DNA from: Pseudomonas sp. PSKL.D1
GTDB lineage: Bacteria > Pseudomonadota > Gammaproteobacteria > Pseudomonadales > Pseudomonadaceae
DNA length: 64,000 nt
Assembly: GCF_028898945.1 (NCBI RefSeq)
Contig: NZ_CP118607.1
Span: 1,178,001 to 1,242,000 of the forward strand
Direction of reading: 5' to 3'
The notes under the pieces: model-generated
The model's input: the letters and a program-made list of their open reading frames with translations, nothing else
Told to the model about the DNA's origin: nothing
The model's database searches: none
Program-made: the position numbers and the translations under genes
In this document: piece by piece, positions 31,541 through 53,281 of the stretch
How the letters are laid out: each line of letters begins with the position of its first letter
Position numbering within the stretch: position 1 is the first letter of the stretch

Positions 31541-32976
31541 TCAGGCCGCCACCTCACTGTGCGGCTCGAAACTGTCGGCCCGGGCCAGTTGCCACATGCG
31601 CGAATAGAACTGCCCGTTTACCTCGCCGGTCAGCAACTCGCCTGGCTTGAGGAATACGTGCATCTGCGAAAACAGTTTGATTTCAGTGGCCGAAATGCGC
31701 CGCACCAGGTGTTTGGCCTCCAGCTGCGCCGGGTGCTCCAGCCCGGCTGCTGCCAGCATTTCTGCCAGTGCGCGCAGCGTGTTGTGGTGGAAGTTCAGTA
31801 CCCGTTGCGCCTTGTCCGGCACCACCAGTGCGCGTTGGCGCAGCGGGTCCTGGGTGGCCACCCCGGTCGGGCATTTGTTGGTATGGCAACTTTGCGACTG
31901 GATGCAACCGATGGCGAACATGAAACCACGCGCCGAGTTGGCCCAGTCGGCACCGATGGCCAGCACGCTGGCGATGTCGAAGGCGCTGACGATCTTGCCG
32001 CTGGCGCCGAGCTTGATCTTGTCGCGCAGGTTCAACCCGACCAGCGTGTTGTGCACGAACAGCAAACCTTCGCGCAGCGGTACGCCGATATGATCGGTGA
32101 ACTCCACTGGCGCAGCCCCCGTGCCGCCTTCCTTGCCGTCCACCACGATGAAGTCGGGCAAGATGCCGGTCTCCAGCATGGCTTTGGCAATGCCCATGAA
32201 CTCCCAAGGGTGGCCCAGGCAGAACTTGAAGCCCACCGGCTTGCCTCCCGAAAGCTCACGCAATTGGGCAATGAACTGCATCATTTCGATGGGCGTGGAA
32301 AAGGCGCTGTGGCGTGATGGAGATATGCAGTCTTCGCCCATCAGCACGCCACGGGTTTCGGCAATTTCCTGGGTCACCTTATGCTTGGGCAAAATGCCGC
32401 CGTGCCCCGGTTTGGCGCCTTGGCTCATCTTGATTTCGATCATTCGTACCTGTGGGCTGAGGGCCTGGGCGGCGAAGCGTTCCGGGTCGAAGCGCCCGTC
32501 CGCGGTGCGGCAGCCGAAGTAGCCACTGCCCAGCTCCCAGACCAGATCGCCACCATGCTCCCGGTGATAGGGGCTGATGCTGCCTTCGCCGGTGTCGTGA
32601 TGGAAGTTCCCCAACTTGGCACCCTGGTTCAGCGCGCGGATGGCATTGGCGCTGAGTGAACCGAAGCTCATGGCCGAAATGTTGAAGATCGACGCCGAAT
32701 AAGGTTGGCTGCATTGCGGGCCGCCGATGATGACCCTGAAGCTTGAAGGGTCGGCCAGCGGCGCGGGGCGCATGGAGTGGCCAATGAATTCGAAGCCAGA
32801 CTCGTACACGTCAATCAGTGTGCCGAAAGGCTTGTCCGAAGCTTCGTTCTTGGCCCGGGCATACACGAGCGAACGCTGGGCACGGGAGAAGGGCAGAGCG
32901 TCGCTGTCGGCCTCCAGCAGGTACTGGCGGATTTCCGGGCGAATGCCCTCAACCAGATAGCGAATGTTGCCCAGGT
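31541..32976 (-). pseudogene. FMN-binding glutamate-synthase-family protein, N-terminus lost
   Basis: About 478 codons with the GltB-like FMN/central domain: PYSASIFNISAMSFGSLSANA, KLGNFHHDTGEGSISPYH, and the Fe-S-type CIQSQSCHTNKCPTGVATQ. The frame stays coding-like upstream of the first possible start GTG 32866, through LGNIRYLVEGIRPEIRQYL, and then loses homology at about 32976 where AT-rich DNA starts. Complete family members are roughly 530-550 residues, so some 60-80 N-terminal residues are missing. The junction marks the core/accessory boundary. Confidence 0.85.
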
Positions 32977-33078: not shown

Positions 33079-33957
33079 TCACAATATCGATAGCCCCTCC
33101 GATTGAAGGCTTTTTTGTACGGAAAATACACGCGTCGACTCATGAATCTTTTCAACAATTAGTGAGTGTAGTTGACACTTATCGTTACGGCTTGGCTTTA
33201 TAGTTTTCCCTGTAATTCGAAGCTCAGCACGACTACCAAATGGCATCTTAAATTTTAGCAACATATTTTTTCTGGAAAGCATCAAGCTATTATTCAGACT
33301 TGTAACCTGAAGGTTTTTATATGGCAGCACTCCTGAAGCAACAGACCTCACAGACAATGAAAGTAGCTGCGTAGCAGAAATCTCATTTTTGCTGAACTTG
33401 TTTCGACCACTCGGCATCAAAAGGCCACCCCCCCCCCTATGCATGCGAGGTAGCCATGACTGAAACTCAGAGGTTAGTACAAAGTTCGCATACGTCTTTG
33501 AAGGACACAGATAATGCCTGAACAGTTCAGCACAAGGGATGAGAATTCTAGCGAAGTAACTTTCAAATCGAACATAATTTATATGGGATAGGAACTCAGC
33601 TCTCGAACACTTGGCACGAAGAAGTCGTTGATTCATCTCTTCAGGTGGCAGATGATGGGCTGCGTCCACATAGGTTACGTCATAGCTACTGAGATCCACC
33701 CAGTGCCCCCCATAAGTATGTGCTGAGATTCTTCGCCCGTTCTGCCATAGTGATCCTGGAATGAGCACACGAATCGCGTCAATTGGAAGCGTCACATAGA
33801 TACTGGACCCAGACCAGACTTTTTCTTTCAAATCTTTTACAGAACGACAGTAAAATACCGCTTCGAACCCCTCTTTATTCCTCGACAAAACCAACTGCCC
33901 AACGCCCATAACCTCCAAAATTGTTGAACCACGATCCAACTGGGGGACATATTTCAT
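33079..33957 (-). CDS. unknown island protein
   Basis: About 292 residues from ATG 33957 (the frame opens at 33993, and neither start has a convincing ribosome site). No family recognised. Visible: many basic residues in the C-terminal third, aromatic-rich central part (YVRFESYFARILIPCAELFRHY), no membrane segment, no signal peptide. Base composition is clearly AT-richer than the core. Lies between the putative element end and a recombinase-like gene, divergent from the latter, so an element-maintenance role is possible but unproven. Confidence 0.55.
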   Translation of the reverse strand: MKYVPQLDRGSTILEVMGVGQLVLSRNKEGFEAVFYCRSVKDLKEKVWSGSSIYVTLPIDAIRVLIPGSLWQNGRRISAHTYGGHWVDLSSYDVTYVDAAHHLPPEEMNQRLLRAKCSRAEFLSHINYVRFESYFARILIPCAELFRHYLCPSKTYANFVLTSEFQSWLPRMHRGGGGLLMPSGRNKFSKNEISATQLLSLSVRSVASGVLPYKNLQVTSLNNSLMLSRKNMLLKFKMPFGSRAELRITGKTIKPSRNDKCQLHSLIVEKIHESTRVFSVQKSLQSEGLSIL

Positions 33958-34058
33958 ATTCAAAACGAAAAACCTATCCCAATAACAAGTCAAGACATAC
34001 CATTAAAGTAGCTGATCCTAGCACGTAATATTGACATACCTATGTCGGCAACATCATA

Positions 34059-34766
34059 TTGCGCTCACCCTCGCAGTCGACAGGTAAATTACCCTTGAAC
34101 AATTTTTCTAAGTCCTCCGTCCTAACCAATACGCAAGTCGCGCACGCCGCGAATCTAGCAAAGTCAATTAGCCATGAAAACGGTAACCGAGACGCCGCGT
34201 TAGTTTTAACCTGCTTCTCAAGTGGACTAACAATCACTGAGATTGCACGACTGACCATCAAAGATTATTTAGCTGCGAACGGGGAGGTTTTACATGAATC
34301 TGAGGTTAGAGAAAAGATTTCCTACAACGGCCGAAGCCGACCACTTTTCTGGGCAAATGCAAAAACAAATTCTGCAATTGACGCACATTTAGCAGAGCGT
34401 TCAATTCGCAATCACGGCACCACATCACACAAAACATTTCGAGGACTAGAACCAGACTCTGCATTGTTCGTGTCCGGCCGAACCGGGGCTGCCTTGAAAA
34501 TCAGTGTCAAGGTAAGAGATGGTCAAACTTACTATAGCTGCAACCAACTAAGTAGGCTCATTACTAGGCTGTTTGAACTCTCGGGAGCACAGGGAGTAAC
34601 TGCACAATCTGGTAGACGAACATTAGCCTGCAAAATGGCGAAACATGGAATTAAGTACAGCTACATAGGTGAAGTCTTAGGCATTGAAAGCCTAGAAGCG
34701 GTAAAAAGATTGTGCCAAGGCTCGCCTCCATGCTTCAAAACAATCATGAAATCGATTTATAAGTGA
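34059..34766 (+). CDS. degenerate tyrosine recombinase-like protein
   Basis: 235 residues from TTG 34059 (true start unclear). The catalytic-domain fold of phage integrases shows in SSGLTITEIARLTIKDY, where box I normally reads GLRxxE, and in TAQSGRRTLACKMAKHGIKYSYIGEVLGI, where box II normally reads HxLRR...LGH. The first catalytic Arg is Thr, the box II His is Gln, and no Tyr is seen at the expected distance. Probably inactive or a structural relative. Confidence 0.6.
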   Translation: MRSPSQSTGKLPLNNFSKSSVLTNTQVAHAANLAKSISHENGNRDAALVLTCFSSGLTITEIARLTIKDYLAANGEVLHESEVREKISYNGRSRPLFWANAKTNSAIDAHLAERSIRNHGTTSHKTFRGLEPDSALFVSGRTGAALKISVKVRDGQTYYSCNQLSRLITRLFELSGAQGVTAQSGRRTLACKMAKHGIKYSYIGEVLGIESLEAVKRLCQGSPPCFKTIMKSIYK

Positions 34767-34984
34767 ATCGCCCCTGGTTTCGCCAACCCCGCAACCGTTG
34801 ATACACCGTCGAGAAGGGCCGAAGCGTTCGGGCTTATTTCGCCACGCAGCGCCCTAACAGAGTACCCAGAGCGCGCCATCAAGCATTAGGCGGTCGCTCA
34901 AGCGGGGCCGCCCTAGGCCGTGGGTTTCCGTGAAGAAATCGGCGACCAGAGTCCAGGCCTCATATGAGAGTTCGTAACGCTTTA
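34767..34984 (-). mobile_element. decayed IS5-family transposase fragment
   Basis: Aligns by eye with bases 36970-37190 of the intact IS (same orientation) at roughly 80 percent identity, covering the first ~70 codons of orfA. Internal stops and no terminal repeats. It comes from a related but different IS, so an older insertion. Confidence 0.8.
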
Positions 34985-35457: not shown

Positions 35458-38218
35458 ATGCGGGTTGCACGGCTACAGATTGAGAATTTTCGGGGTATTA
35501 AGCGTGCGGATGTCTTGTTGCCCAAGCATGCCGTTATCGTCGGTGACAACAACATCGGTAAGTCTACGCTGCTGGAGGCGATTGATCTCGTCCTAGGCCC
35601 CGAGCGACTCTCGCGTCGGCCGGTGATCGATGAGCACGATTTTTATGCGGGGGAATATGTCGATCCACAGAGGCAGCCAGTCAACATCACCATTGAAGCA
35701 GTGATCACTGATCTGAACCTGGATCAGGAAATGCGCTTCCGGGATCACATAGAGTGGTGGGATAACGGTACGGGAGATCTGCTCGGTGGCCCGCCAGCAG
35801 AGGGTACTGACGAACAGATGGTTCAGGCCTGTTTACGCGTCGTTTTTGTCGGCAACTACGACGCTGATGAGGATGATTTCACTGGCACCACGTACTTCTG
35901 CTCGCCGATGAAACAGGATGGGTCCTACGATTTCTTCAGGACGGCCGATAAGCGTGTCTGTGGATTTCTGTACCTGCGCACGATCCGAACCGGCAGTCGT
36001 GCGTTGAGCCTCGAGCGTGGCTCGCTCCTGGACATTATTTTGCGGTTGCAGGACGACAAGAACTTCAAGATCTGGGAAGGACTCCTAGTCGAGCTTCGAC
36101 AGTTGCAGGTTGCAGCTGATCCAGAGATTGGGATCAACGACATCCTGGCGAATGTGCAGGCCTCAATCCGCGGCTACATGCCCAGCGATGACGGCAGCGA
36201 TCCCCAAATGCGAGTCACGCAACTGACACGTGAGTCTCTGCGGAAAGCGTTAACTGTCTTCATGGCAACCGGGGCTCAGCGCAGTGATGGCGAAGCGCAT
36301 GCAGCACCATTCCAGAGCCAAGGCACCGGTACTATTAGGCTCTGTACGAAAAGAGATGTCGCAAACATCGCATGGAACAAGCCAGCGAGACCATGGCGGC
36401 ATAGCTTTTTGCGAGCTTGTCGAAGCGTGTCACGATCCGGCGGTTCTCTTTCAGCCAGCCGAACATGCGTTCGATGATGTTGCGCTGTCGATACTTGGGG
36501 CGGTCAAACAGCCTGGGTAAGCCAGGCTTGGGCTTGCGCTTCATCGAACGCATCGGAATGACGGGTTGCATTCGATATTGGTCGCAGTAGCGGCGCAGCG
36601 CTTCGGCGTCGTAGCCCTTGTCGGCAAGCAACCACTTGCAGCGTTTACGCGGGCGGCCTCGTTGGCTCGATGGAATGCTGACTTCGTCCAGCAGAGGTTG
36701 CGCGTAGCTGATGTCACTGGCTTGGCCGCCAGAGAGGAGGAAGCGCAACGGTGTCCCGTTGGCGTCGCAGAGCATGTGAATCTTGGTTGTCAGGCCACCG
36801 CGACTGCGGCCTAGAGCGTGATCGGCAGGCTCGTCAGGCCCCCTTTTTTCCCGGCGCCAGAAGAGGCTCGGGTTGCGCGTACTGCGGTTGAGTCGATCAT
36901 CCAGGTTTGCAAATCAATCAAGCCTTGCTCATTCAGTCTCAGGTGCAAGCGTTTGAGCATCTGATCGAATGTGCCCTGGTTTCGCCAGCCCCGGAACCGT
37001 TGATACACCGTTGACCAAGGGCCAAAGCGTTCCGGCATATCTCGCCACGCTGCACCCGAACAAAGTACCCAAAGCACGCCATCGAGCATCAGACGGTCGC
37101 TCAGGCGGGGCCGCCCCCGGCAATGGGTTTCTGTGAAGAGATCGGCGACCACAGTCCAAGCCTCATCCGAGAGTTCGTAACGCTTTGCCATCACAGAATT
37201 CCTTTCCGTAGATGGCCGGGAACCCTACAGAAATTCAGCGTCCGAAGGGTGGCGATTGGGTTTCTCGGGATTTCGTACAGAGCCTAACATGATGGTATTG
37301 GCACTTCTGTCGCTAATCGCGGAACTGAAGCAAAACGTGATTTTTGCGATGGAGGAGCCTGAGATAGCAATCCCGCCGCACATTCAGAAACGCATCATCA
37401 ACGGCGTGCGCAGCAAGTCAGCCCAGGCGCTGTTTACCTCGCATTCGCCCTACGTGCTCGAAGAGTTCGAACCCGAGCAAGTTATCGTCATCAGCCGAAA
37501 CGATGGGGAACTGAGTGCCATGCCTGCAGGGCTACCGCCGGGCATCAAAGCAAAAATGTACCGGCAGGACATGCGGCTGCGTGTTTGTGAGGCCCTTCTG
37601 GCACGTCGGGTACTGATTGCAGAAGGCCGGACAGAATACGACGCTTGGCCCGCCGTAGCTCGACTGCTTCATCAGCAGGAGCCAGAGTCATTCATGCCGC
37701 TTGAGGCCTTGGGCATTCCAATCATCGATGCGACGACAGATTCCCTGATCGCGCCGATGGGGGCTTATTACCGCAGACTCGGAAAGAAGGTCTACGCCGT
37801 GTTCGACGAACAGTCACCCGAGCAGCTCGAAGCTATCAAGGCGTCGGTTGACTACCCCTATCAGGCGCCTCAAAAAGGTTTCGAGAACGTCGTTCTCAAA
37901 GGAACCGATGAGGAAGTTTTGCGTGGCTGGGTAGCGTCTTTGATCGACAGCGGTGCTTGGCCTTCAGACTTAAAGGACAAGGCCCCGGGCCCTGATGCCA
38001 CGAAGGATGAGGTAGTAGTGATTCTAGGGGTGCTGCTGAAGCGCTGGAAAGGCGATGGTGCTGCTGCCAGTTTGCTTTGTACCGCCATGACCCGACACCA
38101 CCTGCCGGAATTCATTGTCAGTACCCTCGAGAGCATTACAGCCACAATTGTCCCCAAGAAGCCCGAGCCTGAACCTCCAGAACTGGATGATGACCTTCTC
38201 GATTTGGTCGGGCCTTAA
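35458..38218 (+). pseudogene. GajA/OLD-family ATPase-TOPRIM nuclease, split by IS
   Basis: First part 35458-36337: AAA/SMC-like ATPase with Walker A GDNNIGKST (residues 29-37) and signature start QGTGTI. Second part 37287-38218: Walker B region VIFAMEEPEIAIPPH, H-loop FTSHSPYVLEEF, TOPRIM motif VLIAEGRTEYDAW and an acidic tail. Removing the IS and one TA duplicate restores one open frame of 604 codons (603 residues), reading GTGTINMMVLALL across the join. With the UvrD-like gene 3 bases downstream this is the Gabija (GajA-GajB) or class 2 OLD arrangement; GajA is close to this length. Inactive as it stands unless the IS excises. Confidence 0.82.
36338..37284 (-). mobile_element. IS5-family (IS427-type) insertion sequence, copy 1
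   Basis: 947 bp with terminal repeats GGCTCTGTACGAAA / TTTCGTACAGAGCC and a TA target duplication (36336-36337 and 37285-37286). Two frames on the minus strand: orfA 37194-36811 (127 residues, YELSDEAWTVVADLF) and orfB 36775-36335 (146 residues, GGQASDISYAQPLL, ERMFGWLKENRRIVTRFDKL). orfB starts in the -1 frame relative to orfA. A run of six A then five G in orfA is the likely frameshift site. Encoded proteins are identical to those of copy 2. Confidence 0.95.
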
Positions 38219-38221
38219 CAG

Positions 38222-39940
38222 ATGATGGTGCTTGATCAGTCTCGACGGGATGTTATCGAATCCCCCAGCCATCTGATTGTGATGGGGGGGCCTGGCTCAG
38301 GGAAAACCACAGTCGCATTGCTTAAAGCTGAAGCATTTCTAGGCCGACTAGACCTCACAGAGTATCAGCAGGTGCTGTTCCTGAGCTTCGCCAGAGCAAC
38401 GGTCGCAAGGGTTGCGGAACAGGCTGGGAAAATGCTGCCGAAACTCGAGCAGGCTCGGCTCGAGGTCAACACCTACCATGGCTTCACGTGGAATTTGCTA
38501 CGCAGCCATGGCTACTTGCTCCGCAACGGTCGGCCCTTATCGCTGCTTCCTCCGCCAGAGGCTGCAGCCCGATTGTCCACATTGAGCGAAGAACAGATAG
38601 CCTTGGAGAAAATCAGGCTGCTCGAGGAGGAGGGACTGTTGCACTTCGACCTGTTCGCCGGCAATGCTGCCATGTTGCTGGAGAGAAGCAAGTCGCTGCA
38701 GCGCATCTACGGCAACACCTATCCACTTGTCATACTCGACGAGTTCCAGGACACGAACGAGGATGAGTGGCGTTTCATTCGAGCGCTGACTCGACATAGC
38801 CAGGTGCTGGCTTTGGCTGACCCGGAACAACGAATCTACGAATTCCGCGGTGCTAGTGCTAACAGGATTCAAGAATTCGAAGACGCCTACCGCCCCGCCT
38901 CCTTTTCTTTTGGAATGGAAAATCACCGGAGCACAGGGACCGACATCGTGCAGTTCAGCAACGATCTGCTGACAGGAGCCAATAAGAGCAGAGCCTACAC
39001 CCATGTGTCGGTGACACCCTATGCGCCGCGCAAAGGGATGCTTCATCGGGCTTTCAAATTTGCCGTTCTGACCGCCATTGCACGGTTGAACAGAGGCGAA
39101 CGTGATTGGTCGCTAGCAATTCTGGTGCCCAGCAAGAGCTTCATGGCAGAGGTTTCCGCGTATCTGTCGAGTGACTCGGATAATTTGCCGAGACTTTCCC
39201 ATGAGGTAGCGTTCGACCAATAGGCTGCGGCGCTTTCTGCTACGGCTATCGCCGCGCTTCTCGAGGGCGGCGCGACTGCAGAGATCATTACTGAACGGCT
39301 GCTCAGAAATTTATGTGCTCACCTGCGTGGTAGGAAAGGCGAGAAGGCCCCCAGCAAACCGCATTTGGAATTGGTGCTCGCCCTAGAGCAGTTGTTCGGT
39401 GGACAAGCTCTTCGTCGAGTGCCGCACAAGCGGGTTCTTGCTGCCGCGCAGGTCATCGCGGTCCAGCGTCTTGATCTGCAATTGACTGGCGCCCCCCAGC
39501 TTGACTGGATTGCCGCGCGCCAGCTGCTGGATTCAAGCACCGAGCAGGTCTTCAATCAGATAGGTATCGATGGCCGCTATGTGCGCTTGCTGGGGAAGGG
39601 ATCCCTACTTCGAAGCCGCTTGAGCGAATTGTGGCGCTCAGCCGAGGGTTACCCAGGAGCAGAGAGGCTAGTACGAGATGCTCTTATTCAGGATCACTTC
39701 CAAGCTGTCACCAAGGACTGGAAGGGTCTCCATCTCATGACCATGCACAAGTCAAAGGGAAAGGAATTCACGGAGGTCATTCTTTATGAGGGCGTCATGA
39801 AGGGACGCTTTTTACCGGCCGAAGCAACTCCAGATCGCGTGCGCCAGGCCCGTTTGGCCATGCGTGTCGCTGCCACCCGTGCTATGCAGAAAGTGACCAT
39901 TTTGACGCCGACTGGACGAAATCGCTGCCCGTTGCTTTGA
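38222..39940 (+). pseudogene. GajB-like UvrD/PcrA-family helicase with amber stop
   Basis: One frame of 573 codons interrupted by TAG at 39221-39223. Motif I GGPGSGKTT (residues 22-30), Ia LSFARATVARV, Ic VNTYHGFTWNLL, II VILDEFQDT, III ADPEQRIYEFRGA lie before the stop; V LMTMHKSKGKEF and VI MRVAATRAMQKVT lie after it. Read through, the product is 572 residues, all superfamily 1 motifs present and in order, so the stop looks recent. Starts 3 bases after the GajA-like stop. Confidence 0.85.
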
Positions 39941-52334: not shown

Positions 52335-53281
52335 GGCTCTGTACGAAATCCCGAGAAACCCAATCGCCACCCTTCGGACGCTGAATTTCTGTAGGGTTCC
52401 CGGCCATCTACGGAAAGGAATTCTGTGATGGCAAAGCGTTACGAACTCTCGGATGAGGCTTGGACTGTGGTCGCCGATCTCTTCACAGAAACCCATTGCC
52501 GGGGGCGGCCCCGCCTGAGCGACCGTCTGATGCTCGATGGCGTGCTTTGGGTACTTTGTTCGGGTGCAGCGTGGCGAGATATGCCGGAACGCTTTGGCCC
52601 TTGGTCAACGGTGTATCAACGGTTCCGGGGCTGGCGAAACCAGGGCACATTCGATCAGATGCTCAAACGCTTGCACCTGAGACTGAATGAGCAAGGCTTG
52701 ATTGATTTGCAAACCTGGATGATCGACTCAACCGCAGTACGCGCAACCCGAGCCTCTTCTGGCGCCGGGAAAAAAGGGGGCCTGACGAGCCTGCCGATCA
52801 CGCTCTAGGCCGCAGTCGCGGTGGCCTGACAACCAAGATTCACATGCTCTGCGACGCCAACGGGACACCGTTGCGCTTCCTCCTCTCTGGCGGCCAAGCC
52901 AGTGACATCAGCTACGCGCAACCTCTGCTGGACGAAGTCAGCATTCCATCGAGCCAACGAGGCCGCCCGCGTAAACGCTGCAAGTGGTTGCTTGCCGACA
53001 AGGGCTACGACGCCGAAGCGCTGCGCCGCTACTGCGACCAATATCGAATGCAACCCGTCATTCCGATGCGTTCGATGAAGCGCAAGCCCAAGCCTGGCTT
53101 ACCCAGGCTGTTTGACCGCCCCAAGTATCGACAGCGCAACATCATCGAACGCATGTTCGGCTGGCTGAAAGAGAACCGCCGGATCGTGACACGCTTCGAC
53201 AAGCTCGCAAAAAGCTATGCCGCCATGGTCTCGCTGGCTTGTTCCATGCGATGTTTGCGACATCTCTTTTCGTACAGAGCC
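52335..53281 (+). mobile_element. IS5-family (IS427-type) insertion sequence, copy 2
   Basis: 947 bp, same terminal repeats as copy 1 but in plus orientation, TA on both sides. orfA 52425-52808 (127 residues) and orfB 52844-53284 (146 residues) give one DDE transposase after a -1 shift at the A6G5 run 52770-52780; the shifted frame reads GPDEPADHALGRSRGG into orfB. The orfB stop TAA is formed by the flanking target bases. Inverted relative to copy 1, about 15 kb away. Confidence 0.95.

What the first reader, a model, noticed from the sequence alone, without database searches (positions are those of the whole stretch)
35458..39940. Gabija-like defence pair disabled by an IS insertion, exactly reversible in silico
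The OLD-type ATPase/TOPRIM gene is cut by the IS right after its signature motif. Deleting 36338-37284 plus one TA restores a single 603-residue frame (880 + 932 bases = 604 codons) with all expected motifs, so the insertion is simple and recent. The adjoining UvrD-like helicase completes the GajAB arrangement. Pairing of families is established knowledge; the reconstruction is direct reading.
Basis: partly seen in the sequence, partly recalled or inferred. Interest (0 to 1): 0.72.

Follow-up and report, generated by a model that had tools for sequence, protein, structure and literature searches.

The report
Dead Gabija phage-defence operon
A Pseudomonas genome carries a Gabija anti-phage operon that is broken in both of its genes (one by a jumping DNA element, one by a premature stop), so it is a fairly ordinary, recently dead copy of a well-known immune system and not a switch that one excision could turn back on.

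Summary
gajA (35458-38218) is split by a 947-bp IS5-family element (36338-37284) flanked by TA. The two halves match one GajA profile end to end, and three relatives carry an uninterrupted gene of 603-604 residues in the same order with gajB. The interpretation needs a correction: gajB (38222-39940) is also broken, by an in-frame TAG at codon 334 of 572 (39221-39223), so losing the IS would not give a working system. A third, divergent gene present upstream in those relatives (GIY-YIG nuclease) survives here as a 100-codon stub cut by a diverged IS remnant. The locus lies near the left end of a ~37-kb island. Five of 5 full IS copies in the genome are identical, so its spread is recent; dN/dS is low. 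Of 10 Pseudomonas genomes (199 searched) with this GajA type, 3 have broken it by different routes. Known kind, defunct member. Side findings: this GajA subfamily has D-x-Q or D-x-P, never D-x-D, in 19 of 19 aligned relatives, and the linked GIY-YIG gene.

The parts
35458..36337 (+). gajA 5' part (293 codons plus one base): ABC-ATPase N half with Walker A, ending before Walker B (motif names recalled)
   Evidence: PDLC00086 GajA 1-288/600, 445.9 bits; Pfam AAA_15
36338..37284 (-). IS5-family (IS427-like) insertion sequence, 947 bp, two transposase ORFs (orfA 36811-37194, orfB 36335-36775) with an A6G5 run
   Evidence: Pfam DUF4096 and DDE_Tnp_1; terminal repeats; 5 identical copies; A6G5 run
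36336..36337 (.). TA target duplication, left copy (right copy 37285-37286)
   Evidence: TA flanks 5 of 5 full copies
37285..38218 (+). gajA 3' part (with the right TA copy): Walker B, rest of the ATPase and the Toprim domain
   Evidence: PDLC00086 288-589/600, 375.8 bits; PF20469 OLD-like Toprim
38222..39940 (+). gajB (UvrD-like helicase), one frame of 572 codons with an internal TAG at 39221-39223
   Evidence: PDLC00141 1-572, 1113 bits, 1 TAG; split ORFs
39221..39223 (+). premature in-frame stop of gajB, codon 334
   Evidence: absent in L008, L009, L010
34984..35283 (-). 5' stub (100 codons, start inferred from relatives) of a divergent GIY-YIG nuclease gene, full length (about 230-250 aa) in three relatives
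34772..34983 (.). internal fragment of a related, diverged IS (86% identical to positions 637-849 of the IS), which truncates the GIY-YIG gene
34059..34766 (+). tyrosine-recombinase-like ORF (235 aa) at the left end of the island
   Evidence: Pfam Phage_integrase 9.2e-07
32928..32975 (.). left copy of a 45-48 bp direct repeat that bounds the island; right copy at genome C1:1248170-1248217, about 6.2 kb beyond the window end

Best explanation
This is a recently inactivated Gabija (GajAB, class 2 OLD nuclease plus UvrD-like helicase) operon on a genomic island of a Pseudomonas. When intact, by analogy with studied Gabija systems, GajA tetramers and GajB would form one complex that cuts phage DNA, with both proteins required. 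Here GajA is cut in two by a mobile IS427-like element between its Walker A and Walker B parts, and GajB ends after 333 of 572 residues, before its C-terminal helicase domain. Neither full-length protein can be made, so the cell should have no Gabija from this locus. Shown: anatomy, family, both lesions, intact relatives. Inferred: recency, loss of function. Not shown: which lesion came first.
For: Halves of each gene match one profile in register. Uninterrupted gajA-gajB in the same order in P. mosselii SC006, P. capeferrum 20A1 and Pseudomonas sp. RIT409. Single gajB frame with one TAG. IS: TA duplication and 5 of 5 full copies identical. 84 of 84 testable subfamily-invariant GajA residues kept in the two halves (85 listed, one lies at the junction and was set aside). 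dN/dS 0.064-0.176 against 20A1, so constraint ended recently. No other copy found in the genome: the GajA profile hits only these two halves, one Toprim hit, one full GajB hit (its other hits are short, to other frames). Both genes are needed in B. cereus Gabija and in P. aeruginosa PA14 Gabija (PMC10822852, PMC12407980, passages seen).
Against: The TAG could be an assembly error; no reads and no second isolate of this strain were available. The GajA C-terminal fragment has its own open frame (37256-38218), and partial activity cannot be ruled out without a test.
Confidence: 0.93

Rival explanations
1. Reversible switch: the IS turns Gabija off and on by precise excision.
For: Clean TA duplication and an open frame on each side; low dN/dS.
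Against: gajB carries an independent stop and the third gene is truncated, so excision alone restores nothing. The assembly holds only the filled form, though a mixed population would not show in it.
Confidence: 0.03
2. The gajB stop is a sequencing error and only the IS disables the system.
For: A single stop in an otherwise open frame of 572 codons; the part after the stop shows no excess of amino-acid changes (9 synonymous to 3 non-synonymous unique codons).
Against: The part before the stop has a raised share of non-synonymous unique changes (4 to 4, against 51 to 6 summed over three relatives; Fisher p = 0.016, uncorrected, one of several comparisons). The genome is one contig rated 100% complete.
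Confidence: 0.12
3. The operon was already dead (gajB stop, truncated GIY-YIG gene) when the IS landed, so the IS insertion was neutral and says nothing about selection. This is a version of the best explanation, not an alternative to it.
For: The IS copies are identical, while the IS remnant in the GIY-YIG gene is 86% identical to them; gajB 5' part shows more amino-acid change than gajA.
Against: Counts are small; the 3' part of gajB shows no such excess; the remnant may have been diverged when it arrived.
Confidence: 0.45

Closest known systems
Gabija (GajA + GajB), class 2 OLD nuclease with UvrD-like helicase; type B. cereus VD045
   Different: Both genes broken; Toprim motif D-x-Q or D-x-P in place of D-x-D; identity to 8sm3 only 18% or 15%.
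Intact gajAB of P. mosselii SC006 (L008) and P. capeferrum 20A1 (L009)
   Same: 93% DNA identity from 34974 to beyond 39940, IS apart; same order; same upstream GIY-YIG gene.
   Different: Both genes open; no IS; GIY-YIG gene full length.
gajAB of megaplasmid p12939-PER (P. aeruginosa)
   Same: 90.8% identity over the matching part; full-length GajA and GajB.
   Different: On a plasmid; no GIY-YIG match at E 1e-3 in the 15.6 kb fetched.
IS427 group of the IS5 family
   Same: Two ORFs with a possible frameshift run, 2-bp duplication, DDE transposase (PMC3281130 passages).
   Different: No element name was assigned; 947 bp is longer than the 832-865 bp of the IS427-group elements in the passages seen.

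Membership tests
Gabija (class 2 OLD + UvrD-like helicase) | GajA-type ABC-ATPase plus Toprim protein | tested here: met
   Both halves hit PDLC00086 in register; PF20469 Toprim; the intact relative's model matches OLD and GajA structures over residues 1-585
Gabija (class 2 OLD + UvrD-like helicase) | UvrD-like helicase gene directly adjacent | tested here: met
   gajB starts with 3 bases between it and the gajA stop; PDLC00141; GajB match just after GajA in 36 of 37 loci L008-L044 (L027's contig ends inside gajA)
Gabija (class 2 OLD + UvrD-like helicase) | Both genes able to make full-length protein (a working system) | tested here: not met
   IS in gajA and TAG in gajB; so it is filed as a defunct member, not as a functional system
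Gabija (class 2 OLD + UvrD-like helicase) | GajA-GajB 4:4 complex and phage resistance | not testable with these tools
   Needs bench work; known for B. cereus (PMC10781630 passages)
B. cereus-type GajA active site (sub-type feature, not used to define Gabija) | Complete Toprim D-x-D (D432, D434) | tested here: not met
   D467 in 19 of 19, residue +2 is Q in 16 and P in 3, D in 0; D467 follows strand 461-466 in the model
IS427 group, IS5 family | DDE transposase in two frames, 2-bp target duplication | tested here: met
Three-gene Gabija with GIY-YIG partner | GIY-YIG gene regularly beside gajAB | tested here: not met
   Long match to the L009 GIY-YIG protein in 3 of the 38 Gabija-type loci L008-L045 (L008-L010, E 1e-3, so other kinds of GIY-YIG gene would be missed, and L020, L027 and L043 have little upstream DNA); a short 43% match over 42 residues in L053/L112; in the genus 4 of 198 genomes incl. 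the own stub, one of them (G149) without gajAB in the 15 kb fetched around it

The most novel reading that the evidence does not exclude
This Pseudomonas lineage of Gabija is a distinct variant: GajA with a D-x-Q Toprim site that works with a changed metal arrangement, helped by a divergently transcribed GIY-YIG nuclease, and costly enough to the host that it is repeatedly shut down by independent hits (IS plus stop here, deletion fusion in SID14000, stop in 39A2).
Probability: 0.08. Interest if true: 0.5.

Novelty: new member of a known kind. Interest (0 to 1): 0.22.

Why it matters
It warns that a motif-level reading or a profile hit (both gajA halves and gajB score very highly) can count a dead defence system as present, and that an IS insertion need not be the only lesion. 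If the altered Toprim motif holds up, intact relatives give a test of whether GajA needs the second aspartate of D-x-D.

Tried and rejected
Third component: the GIY-YIG gene looked like a possible new Gabija partner, but a long match stands beside gajAB in only 3 of 38 Gabija-type loci and a degraded copy occurs apart from gajAB in G149; rejected as a core part. Backup Gabija elsewhere in the genome: none found. Relaxed selection as a clock: inconclusive (the script stopped with an error in its last part because two relatives' stretches were too short, and that part was redone with four sequences, G057 and G190 left out). Single-sequence PDB search of the C half: nothing; the N half hit only 6p74; a profile was needed. 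A profile of the Toprim part alone gave only weak hits to class 2 OLD domains (0.0086 and 0.061), so the place of D467 rests on the model's strand and the motif. Phage records: only fragments of the IS in 2 records. RecBCD loss as a reason to discard Gabija (self-targeting in recB mutants, PMC12407980 passages): a frame of 1228 aa that looks like RecB (inferred from its length and helicase match) is present without a stop, so no support. Papers on Gabija with GIY-YIG: 3 listed, passages of one seen (PMC10952713), which lists GIY-YIG under other systems; the other two seen as listing only. Papers on Gabija with IS, pseudogenes or disruption: listings, plus passages of PMC12322248, PMC12479173 and PMC10250203; none of the passages seen describes an IS inside gajA. 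PMC10568477 was seen in passages. The library holds only open-licence papers, so this is not proof of absence.

Full report
What is there. The window is G000 C1:1178001-1242000 of a 5.88-Mb one-contig genome. The genus is Pseudomonas by inference: genomes that the search calls 'same genus' have contigs of the same length as named Pseudomonas records (for example G024 C63, 280027 bases, and P. mosselii SC006, NZ_VAUO01000008.1). The species was not determined.

gajA. ORF 35458-36477 matches the GajA profile PDLC00086 at 1-288 of 600, and ORF 37256-38218 matches it at 288-589. Between them lies a 947-bp element, 36338-37284, with inverted terminal repeats, transposase domains, two reading frames with an A6G5 run and TA on either side. 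Five full copies exist in the genome; 5 of 5 are 100% identical and 5 of 5 have TA on both sides; two partial matches are 86% identical. Passages of PMC3281130 describe a frameshift motif for the IS427 group of IS5 and list mostly 2-bp duplications (one element with 4). L008 (P. mosselii SC006) and L009 (P. capeferrum 20A1) have a 603-residue GajA and L010 (Pseudomonas sp. RIT409) 604, with DNA contiguous at the insertion point.

gajB, the missed lesion. One search lists the helicase as two ORFs, 38222-39223 and 39365-39940. They are in one frame. The profile PDLC00141 runs through 1-572 with one TAG inside, at 39221-39223, codon 334. L008, L009 and L010 have an open 572-residue GajB. The UvrD C-terminal domain match lies after the stop. 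According to passages of PMC10822852 and PMC12407980 both proteins are needed for defence, so the locus would be inactive even without the IS.

A third broken gene. The block shared with L008 and L009 starts at 34974, upstream of gajA. In L008, L009 and L010 it holds a divergent gene with a GIY-YIG domain (PF01541, E 1.3e-07, 4.6e-07 and 3e-05). In the window about 100 codons remain, 35283 down to 34984, ending at an 86%-identical internal fragment of a related IS. The gene is not a general Gabija component: a long match stands beside gajAB in 3 of the 38 Gabija-type loci L008-L045, 4 of 198 genomes of the genus have it, the own stub included, and the copy in G149 has two stops and no gajAB within the 15 kb fetched. 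A short 43% match upstream of gajA in L053/L112 (42 residues) may be a remnant or another GIY-YIG gene.

Setting. In three relatives (G024, G016, G007) the sequence that ends at window 32975 runs straight on into the equivalent of genome position 1248170, over a stretch that in our genome is present twice (45-48 bp, 94-96% identical). So an island of about 37.2 kb sits inside a GltB-like gene (Pfam Glu_synthase), and the Gabija locus is near its left end next to a recombinase-like ORF. A NucC/PD-DExK-like gene lies near the right end, outside the window.

Age. 84 of 84 testable invariant residues of the GajA subfamily are kept. dN/dS against 20A1 is 0.078 and 0.064 for the two gajA parts, 0.176 for gajB before the stop and 0.106 after it. 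Codons unique to the window in gajB before the stop are 4 synonymous and 4 not, against 51 and 6 summed over SC006, 20A1 and G190 (Fisher p = 0.016, uncorrected); after the stop 9 and 3 in a four-sequence set, no excess. This hints that gajB decayed first but does not settle it.

How often. In the genus search 199 genomes were examined, at most six candidates scored in each; 115 gave some match to the GajA profile, by their scores and partial coverage mostly other AAA/OLD proteins (my reading of a capped list). I counted as this type the nine with E below 1e-100 (own genome included) plus G103 (5e-33, first 75 positions, the deletion remnant); G138 and G005 (1e-47, positions 1-420) were left out as other OLD proteins. 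Among the named loci L008-L045 five of 38 look broken: L017 and L036 by frame change in gajA, L020 by frame change in gajB, L026 by a stop in gajA, L045 by deletion. L017 and L020 are MAGs and may be assembly errors; L026 and L045 are the same cases as G053 and G103. Four (L018, L024, L027, L043) run off their contig and could not be judged in full. L032 and L041 show a stop inside the alignment only near its end, with open frames of 585 and 578 residues, and were not counted.

Verdict. The description is correct and well reasoned, but the system is dead twice over in its core genes. Known kind, ordinary decay; low interest, with two modest leads.

Noticed in passing
32928-32975 to genome C1:1248217 (about window 70217): About 37.2-kb island bounded by a 45-48 bp direct repeat, inserted inside a GltB-like (glutamate-synthase family) gene; empty site in three relatives.
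   Followed up: partly
L098:6718-7752 (-), outside the window: 344-aa protein with NucC/PD-DExK-like similarity near the right end of the same island.
   Followed up: no
52335-53281: Second, identical copy of the IS in the same island, opposite orientation.
   Followed up: partly
L008:7110-7901, L009:7110-7868, L010:7071-7847 (-): Divergent GIY-YIG nuclease gene beside gajA; 52 homologous protein clusters found, the named ones nearly all Pseudomonas; degraded copy with two stops in G149 without gajAB nearby.
   Followed up: yes
L009 GajA D467-Q469; alignment A1: This GajA subfamily has D-x-Q or D-x-P in place of the D-x-D of B. cereus GajA, 19 of 19.
   Followed up: partly
L045:8001-8628: Pseudomonas sp. 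SID14000 has a deletion that brings the start of gajA next to the middle of gajB.
   Followed up: partly
L096; L097:6001-7114: P. aeruginosa megaplasmid p12939-PER carries full-length gajAB; nine other P. aeruginosa plasmid records match only a 3' part of gajB, in the one of nine looked at next to IS6100 and a KPC gene. Described only.
   Followed up: no
34059-34766 and 33079-33993: Recombinase-like ORF (weak XerC and Phage_integrase matches) and a 304-aa ORF without any family match in Pfam, NCBIfam or PADLOC.
   Followed up: no
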